The position numbers and the translations under genes are program-made. Shown piece after piece: positions 60,707 to 60,955 of a DNA stretch of 64,000 nucleotides. Position 1 is the stretch's first letter, and the number at the start of each line of letters is the position of its first letter. Origin of the DNA: Periplaneta americana (lineage: Eukaryota; Arthropoda; Insecta; Blattodea; Blattidae); assembly GCF_040183065.1 (NCBI RefSeq), contig NC_091127.1, forward strand, positions 26,896,391-26,960,390, read 5' to 3'. A model generated the notes under the pieces. That model worked only from the letters and a program-made list of their open reading frames with translations. It did no database searches and had not been told where the DNA came from.

Positions 60707-60955
60707 GTAATTGATTAACTAGCGGACTTACTCATGTTAATTATGTAAGTCTGTGCGGCTTACAGCTGTTTTGGTGCATCATCACACCATCTTCAGATGA
60801 CGCCGAGACCTAGTTGGCTCTGAAGATGGTGTGATGATGCACCGAAACACCTGTAAGCCGCACAGACTTACATAATTAACACGAGTAAGTCCGCTAGTTA
60901 ATCAATTAGTTATATTCAAGTGTTAAAAGTAGTGTACGCAAGATTCAAAATGGAT
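60707..60955. mobile_element. Palindromic retroelement with 11-bp TSD
   Basis: Arms of about 88 bp (60709-60797 and 60820-60907) are near-perfect inverted copies around a 22-bp centre. TATAAATATCA flanks the whole at 60696-60706 and 60956-60966, leaving 48 unpaired bases at the right end. A hammerhead-like motif reads outward on the + strand (60816-60859), with a mutated partner on the minus strand. Plan and motif match 36465-37194. Confidence 0.82.
60816..60859 (+). ncRNA. Hammerhead-like motif in palindrome
   Basis: GGCT (stem I), CTGAAGA at 60820-60826, extra T, stem II GGTG/CACC, GAAA at 60844-60847, stem III ACA-CC-TGT, A at the cleavage position, AGCC pairing with GGCT. All three stems form by eye. 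The minus-strand partner has CAAAAC in place of GAAAC and is probably inactive. Confidence 0.5.

What the first reader, a model, noticed from the sequence alone, without database searches (positions are those of the whole stretch)
60707..60955. Palindromic element with a complete hammerhead-like fold and 11-bp TSD
Near-perfect inverted arms are flanked by TATAAATATCA and carry stem I GGCT/AGCC, CTGAAGA, stem II GGTG/CACC, GAAA, stem III ACA/TGT and a UA cleavage position. Hammerheads with very short stem III are known from Penelope-like elements. This copy has a U between the core and stem II, a departure from CUGANGA plus stem that needs testing. A self-contained palindrome with a ribozyme may be a compact mobile unit.
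Basis: partly seen in the sequence, partly recalled or inferred. Interest (0 to 1): 0.7.

Follow-up and report, generated by a model that had tools for sequence, protein, structure and literature searches.

The report
Short two-ended Penelope retroelement insertion
The palindrome is the tiny inserted stub of an abundant Penelope-like retroelement, two inverted copies of its tail end joined head to head, and it carries a worn copy of the element's own hammerhead ribozyme, a kind built to work in pairs; it is not a free-standing mobile unit.

Summary
60707-60955 is a near-perfect palindrome with an 11-bp TSD, and its right arm holds a hammerhead core. It is one insertion of a Penelope-like element (PLE) abundant in this 3.23-Gb genome: the tail pattern matches at least 3,410 times, and copies carry an RT ORF (RVT_1) with a GIY-YIG-like end just upstream of the same hammerhead. 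The palindrome is not copied as a unit: 15 palindromic copies have different centres. Each looks like two 5'-truncated cDNAs, one from each side of the target, joined head to head. The PLE tail is absent from the other arm in 25 of 25 readable tail-selected copies. In 38 of 54 junctions the arms stop at least 20 nt apart, in 27 of these with the tail-less arm longer, which disfavours snap-back self-priming. The extra U is a family trait (90 of 92 copies), also present in a lizard PLE ribozyme that cleaves with its protein (PMC11167929). Stem III of the family is self-complementary ACAGCUGU; the dimer folds as a double hammerhead. The window copy has lost this. Only 2 of 68 cDNA ends lie near the cut.

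The parts
60696..60706 (.). left target-site duplication TATAAATATCA
   Evidence: exact repeat, two occurrences in the window; TSD statistics over 33 insertions
60707..60796 (-). left arm: inverted, 5'-truncated 3' end of a PLE, without tail
   Evidence: reference 954-1043
60757..60796 (-). second hammerhead copy in the left arm, broken (AAAA instead of GAAA, no stem I 5' strand)
60795..60819 (+). centre with stem I 5' strand GGCT; belongs to the right copy, overlaps the left arm by 3 nt at the junction
   Evidence: longer copies match the window unit from this base on; right arm from reference 930, junction -3
60816..60859 (+). PLE hammerhead (stem I GGCU/AGCC, CUGAAGA, extra U, stem II GGUG/CACC, GAAA, stem III ACACCUGU, predicted cut after A60855)
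   Evidence: sequence; family comparison; dimer fold
60795..60916 (+). right arm: PLE 3' end (pLTR-like region)
60917..60955 (+). PLE tail, on this arm only, ending ..CAAAATGGAT
60956..60966 (.). right target-site duplication TATAAATATCA
36465..37194 (.). second palindrome of another family with the same anatomy: head-to-head arms, hammerhead at 36581(-), extra ~30 nt on the left arm only, TSD AAGTGATATTGCT at 36452-36464 and 37195-37207
49739..49965 (+). PLE relic: ORF-end remnant (PKSQKLKTLEQY..) followed by a hammerhead at 49926 with self-complementary ACAUGU

Best explanation
60707-60955 is a very short insertion of a Penelope-like retroelement. Most likely the element's protein cut both strands of an AT-rich target in a staggered way and primed reverse transcription of its RNA from both sides. 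On the right it began at the tail site, on the left at the site about 40 nt upstream. Both cDNAs stopped just upstream of the hammerhead core and their ends were joined through a few shared bases, which left two inverted arms, one tail and an 11-bp target duplication. The hammerhead is the element's own minimal type I ribozyme, whose self-complementary stem III suits it to work as a pair of RNAs. Shown by sequence: arms, tail, TSD, family, RT ORF, dimer-compatible fold. Inferred: the two-ended priming itself, and cleavage activity in this species.
For: PLE identity: 500-aa open frame in L104 with RVT_1 at 59.8 bits (cut-off 29.6) and a C-terminal GVYKLTC..FYIGQTGRSFQTRYKEH stretch, hammerhead 45 nt after it; L105 has ORF, hammerhead and tail in a row. 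Copies: 3,410 tail matches, backward control 0. Anatomy: 19 of 20 longer copies have an inverted tail-less left arm and a tailed right arm; in the tail-selected sample 30 of 40 show inverted PLE sequence on the left within the ~1.1 kb read, one of them (L066) only 24 nt; tail absent on 25 of 25 readable left arms. TSD: longest shared flank word at least 8 nt in 24 of 33 against 5.7% of permuted pairs. Independent formation: different centres in 15 palindromes. Two cDNAs: 38 of 54 junctions join template points at least 20 nt apart, 27 of these with the tail-less arm longer; 1-10 nt overlap in 32 of 54. Ribozyme: the dimer MFE of the commonest family form is the double hammerhead with 24 of 24 expected pairs; so for 57 of 92 copies, 0 of 276 shuffles; core with GG..CC closure 413 matches against 26 for GG..GG; stem II pairs 3 and 4 formed in 0.87 of 55 strings against shuffled 0.57 and 0.61.
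Against: 11 of 54 junctions have arms ending within 3 nt of each other, as snap-back would give; 7 of these are zero-difference cases among the palindromes of the first sample, so some of the shortest copies could have formed that way. The GIY-YIG domain rests on a motif and weak PDB matches (1mk0, E 0.94 and 0.51); Pfam did not call it. No left arm was found for L041 or recognised in 10 of 40 tail-selected copies, some of them because the stretch read was short. The PAc study saw no difference in start site between the strands in vitro, whereas the arms here are asymmetric. All copies were chosen by their tail, so insertions without any tail were not seen. Cleavage was not measured, and MFE folding of the window copy and of PAc does not give the hammerhead.
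Confidence: 0.82

Rival explanations
1. Snap-back self-priming: one cDNA is made, its end folds back and is copied into an inverted arm (a relative of the self-priming model of PMC3846280, which is there placed on an antisense template).
For: 11 of 54 junctions have equal arm limits within 3 nt; published head-to-head junction palindromes were read this way (PMC3846280, passages).
Against: An arm copied from the tailed arm should carry the tail; left arms lack it in 25 of 25 readable tail-selected cases and end within a few bases of one place. An arm copied from the tail-less arm could not gain the tail. 38 of 54 junctions have unequal limits and in 27 of them the tail-less arm is the longer.
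Confidence: 0.12
2. A non-autonomous foldback or MITE-like unit that moves as a whole and carries a ribozyme.
For: Palindrome, TSD, many copies of similar length.
Against: Centres differ between the 15 copies read; the same ends bound spacers of 95-1198 bp of further PLE sequence; tail on one arm only.
Confidence: 0.03
3. The hammerhead sets the 5' end of the RNA that is reverse transcribed (processing of tandem transcripts).
For: Position of the motif at the pLTR-like end, as in other PLEs.
Against: 2 of 68 cDNA 5' ends in the tail-selected sample fall at 986-996 around the cut, 1 at 988-994; clusters lie at 935-959 (9) and 1000-1015 (9). In PAc, ribozyme mutants did not change insertion in vitro.
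Confidence: 0.08
4. The hammerhead resemblance is chance.
For: No Rfam hit; ordinary monomer folding energy (z -0.6).
Against: 413 against 26 matches with intact and broken stem closure, covariation in stem II, self-complementary stem III in 17 of 19 loci read, the same location as in known PLEs.
Confidence: 0.02

Closest known systems
Penelope-like elements, e.g. Pen2a_Av of Adineta vaga (PMC3846280, passages seen)
   Same: inverted pLTR adjoining the element, 9-bp TSD there and 11 bp here, a 31-bp tail optional on one inverted pLTR, head-to-head junctions
   Different: here the insertion is reduced to two arms with no full coding sequence; thousands of tail matches in the genome; most mapped junctions do not fit snap-back
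PAc (Poseidon of Anolis carolinensis; PMC11167929, passages and part 2 of the main text seen)
   Same: hammerhead with one extra U between the core and stem II (CUGAGGA-U-GCC..GGC-GAAACGUC in the printed RNA), two RT start sites that bound the tail, AT-rich target, both strands cut and extended in vitro
   Different: in PAc the extra U is part of the AUG start codon; here AUG GUG UGA is closed, although the 36.5-kb family in this window has an open AUG there
Minimal type I hammerheads of PLEs (Cervera and de la Pena 2014; Lunse et al. 2017: seen as titles in reference lists only; reviews PMC7761336 and PMC6155905, passages seen)
   Same: short or missing helix III, proposed dimeric action, PLE location
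   Different: self-complementary stem III of 8 nt, ACAGCUGU, longer than the ACGU seen in 13 of 19 loci; no match to Rfam 15 hammerhead models
Animal retrozymes (PMC7761336, passages seen)
   Same: type I hammerheads in repeats
   Different: those are direct repeats of ~150-300 bp; this is an inverted pair with PLE ends

Membership tests
Penelope-like element (EN-containing) | reverse transcriptase ORF | tested here: met
   RVT_1 59.8 and 59.6 bits in the two copies scanned, L104 and L105, cut-off 29.6
Penelope-like element (EN-containing) | C-terminal GIY-YIG endonuclease | tested here: inconclusive
   GVY..YIG motif by eye; I-TevI 1mk0 only at E 0.94 and 0.51; no Pfam hit
Penelope-like element (EN-containing) | inverted pLTR-like arms with a tail on one of them | tested here: met
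Penelope-like element (EN-containing) | short variable TSD in AT-rich target | tested here: met
   median 11 nt, 24 of 33 at least 8 nt; AT-rich by reading the flanks printed there, composition not computed
Penelope-like element (EN-containing) | RT placement in the PLE clade by phylogeny | not tested
   no reference PLE proteins at hand
Minimal type I hammerhead | CUGANGA .. GAAA core with stems I and II | tested here: met
   of 92 ungapped copies 75 keep both core strings, 85 stem II, 74 stem I; 54 keep core, II, III and at least 3 pairs of I together
Minimal type I hammerhead | self-complementary stem III for dimers | tested here: met
   77 of 92 copies; not in the window's right arm, which has two C-C mismatches in the dimer
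Minimal type I hammerhead | self-cleavage | not testable with these tools
   bench assay needed
Rfam hammerhead families | covariance-model match | tested here: not met
MITE or foldback transposon | whole unit conserved between insertions | tested here: not met
   centres differ

The most novel reading that the evidence does not exclude
The self-complementary hammerhead is chiefly a device that holds two template RNAs together, as a dimer, in the particle that inserts the element. The two RNAs are then copied at the same time from the two sides of one cut, with two different start sites, so that nearly every insertion is a head-to-head pair. Cleavage would be secondary.
Probability: 0.13. Interest if true: 0.8.

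Novelty: new member of a known kind. Interest (0 to 1): 0.42.

Why it matters
How PLEs insert, and what their hammerhead is for, are open questions. This genome gives thousands of tail matches of one family with readable junctions. The sample read here argues against snap-back self-priming as the main route, for two cDNAs with different start sites, and against hammerhead cleavage setting the template end.

Tried and rejected
Rejected: a mobile palindromic unit (centres differ); a microRNA precursor (mir-5984 at E 6.5e-06 and others, all far below their gathering scores; my reading is that the long hairpin causes them); a stable monomer ribozyme; cleavage-defined template ends. Pfam and PDB searches gave no firm proof of the GIY-YIG domain.

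Limits. The first sample (15 + 20 copies) was chosen by similarity to the window unit and favours short palindromes. The second (40 of the 100 places listed, of 3,410 or more) was chosen by a perfect tail and covers parts of contigs C1 and C2 only. One search prints 3410 under both forward and reverse; this may be one number shown twice. L028 and L029 share flanks and junction, and L058 and L060 share arm limits, so they are not independent; L028 and L029 are both among the 54 junctions. One search counted only arms joined within -25 to +30 nt: of 34 first-sample copies with two ends L023 and L031 were dropped, of 40 tail-selected copies 18 were dropped (no second arm read, arm cut by the edge, or a larger gap). 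The 68 ends are BLAST limits; L075 and L082, whose right arms were too short to align, are missing, and L066's 24-nt match is included. One search keeps only ungapped hammerheads with at least 33 of 44 matches, so worn ones are left out. The 413 matches include at least 38 units of one tandem array; by my reading 19 of the 26 matches come from two repeats that are not PLE-like. One search used 55 distinct strings typed from the 100 places listed, which are partly related copies; four further variants of the array unit were left out; pair 5 was not significant (0.72 against 0.62). The shuffles keep base content only.

Not answered: the genome count of hammerheads without the extra U, of the compensated closure CC..GG (asked once), and of arms with and without tail. 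The server was busy each time.

Full report
What is there. The window holds a palindrome at 60707-60916 (arms 95% complementary over 98 nt), a ~40-nt unpaired extension to 60955, and TATAAATATCA on both sides. The right arm has the hammerhead strings at the stated places; the left arm has a second copy with AAAA for GAAA and no stem I partner. As DNA the whole unit is one long hairpin of -104.2 kcal/mol, so in a read-through transcript the ribozyme would probably be buried in it (inference).

Other copies. The window's own genome (3.23 Gb, 91 contigs) gave 92 matching stretches with 40 of 2,213 candidates scored, in two classes: full palindromes, and copies that match only the centre, right arm and tail. 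I fetched 15 of the first and 20 of the second. The 15 palindromes all show the tail; their left ends line up within about two bases in 13 of 15 (L010 differs over its first bases, L023 lacks a full left arm), but their centres differ in length and sequence. The 20 longer copies are the same thing with longer arms: 19 have an inverted left arm without tail and a right arm with tail, 95-1198 bp apart; L041 shows no left arm. The spacers are largely further PLE sequence, in many copies with the ORF end. In 33 insertions the two flanks share a word of median 11 nt; 24 of 33 share at least 8 nt against 5.7% when flanks are permuted.

What element. Searching the genome with an 89-aa piece gave 150 scored matches of 39,113 candidates. 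The four longest open frames listed there (458-500 aa, L104-L107) hold RT motifs, with RVT_1 above its cut-off in the two that I scanned, and end in a GIY-YIG-like stretch; the hammerhead follows within 10-45 nt in all four, and in L105 the tail after it. Two more such elements lie in the window: a palindrome at 36465-37194 with a 13-bp TSD and ~30 extra nt on one arm only, and a relic at 49739-49965. An ORF-end remnant lies at 63752-63952 on the minus strand.

How the insertion was made. To avoid choosing copies by their shape I took tail matches (3,410 or more) and read 40 of the 100 listed. Inverted PLE sequence lies on the left in 30 of 40. Left arms lack the tail in 25 of 25 readable cases. 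Over both samples, 54 junctions could be mapped on one reference copy: 32 have 1-10 nt of overlap, 18 a short fill, 2 are blunt and 2 have a larger overlap; 38 join positions at least 20 nt apart, 11 join positions within 3 nt. In the tail-selected subset the figures are 19 and 2 of 22. In 27 of the 38 the tail-less arm reaches further than the tailed arm, so it cannot have been copied from it in full. The two arms come from the same hammerhead subclass in 30 of 37 cases where both could be read. This fits two cDNAs primed from the two sides of a staggered cut. The lizard PLE protein cuts and extends both strands in vitro and starts at two sites that bound the tail (PMC11167929), although without a difference between the strands. 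The published reading of head-to-head Penelope junctions is self-priming (PMC3846280); it may still explain some of the equal-arm palindromes.

The ribozyme. Among 92 ungapped copies in 74 insertions, 75 keep both core strings, 85 stem II, 74 stem I, 77 a self-complementary stem III, and 54 all of these with at least 3 pairs of stem I; 90 have the extra U, the other 2 an A. The commonest form folds as an RNA dimer into the double hammerhead, with stem II one pair longer; 57 of 92 copies do so and 0 of 276 shuffled strings. The window copy has two C-C mismatches there and does not; nor does the printed PAc ribozyme, so MFE folding is no test of activity. Across the genome the core with a closed stem (GG..CC) occurs 413 times and with a broken one (GG..GG) 26 times, with 0 in the backward controls. 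In 55 distinct strings, stem II pairs 3 and 4 are formed in 0.87 of cases against 0.57 and 0.61 when shuffled, with A-T, T-A, C-G and G-C in use between them; pair 5 shows nothing. In 17 of 19 loci read, 4 of them of the finding's own family, the strand after GAAA is self-complementary (the pattern itself fixed ACG). Rfam hammerhead models miss the window copy, the 36.5-kb copy and an intact family copy.

The extra U. The printed PAc RNA reads CUGAGGA-U-GCC..GGC-GAAACGUC, so the same U sits in a ribozyme that was shown to cleave, though only with its protein. There the A-U-G is the start codon; the 36.5-kb family here also has an open AUG at that place, the family of the finding does not. An extra core nucleotide is also on record for a viroid hammerhead, where it weakens cleavage (passage in PMC11014351; that it sits at the same place is recalled).

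What the ribozyme does not seem to do. Of 68 cDNA 5' ends in the tail-selected sample, 2 fall at 986-996 around the cut, with larger clusters on either side. Template ends are thus not set by cleavage in most of these insertions, which agrees with the PAc mutants.

Verdict. A well-marked product of a known kind of element, in a family whose numbers make PLE insertion testable. The bold reading left open is that the hammerhead pairs the two templates.

Noticed in passing
L084 266-3578 (G000:C3:30829700-30833400): A tandem array of a 50-bp unit, 66 copies, each a PLE-type hammerhead core (CTGATGATGGAACCTGTATGTATTTCCGAAACGTT..). Far shorter than the 150-300-bp animal retrozyme units named in PMC7761336; stem I looks weak. 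Could yield a ladder of small RNAs if active.
   Followed up: partly
36452-37207: Second head-to-head palindrome of another PLE-type family, 13-bp TSD, ~30 extra nt on the left arm only, hammerhead AUG in frame with [33 protein letters not shown].
   Followed up: partly
49739-49965: PLE relic with its own hammerhead, extra U and self-complementary ACAUGU.
   Followed up: partly
63752-63952, minus strand: PLE ORF-end remnant (DMEILHISPKNQKLDTLQQYE).
   Followed up: no
3151-5014: Satellite-like array of 92-bp units (90-bp spacing at 2815-3354) running up to a predicted tRNA at 4960-5032; another tRNA-like match at 1262-1334 lies in a 109-nt direct repeat.
   Followed up: no
2207-2466 and 48056-48301: Dispersed SINE-like repeat pair with GGTAATCTATGGC..ACGCTAAATAACC.
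   Followed up: no
family junctions, reference 935-959 and 1000-1015: cDNA ends cluster just upstream of the hammerhead core and again 10-25 nt after the cut (9 of 68 each); the cause is not known.
   Followed up: partly
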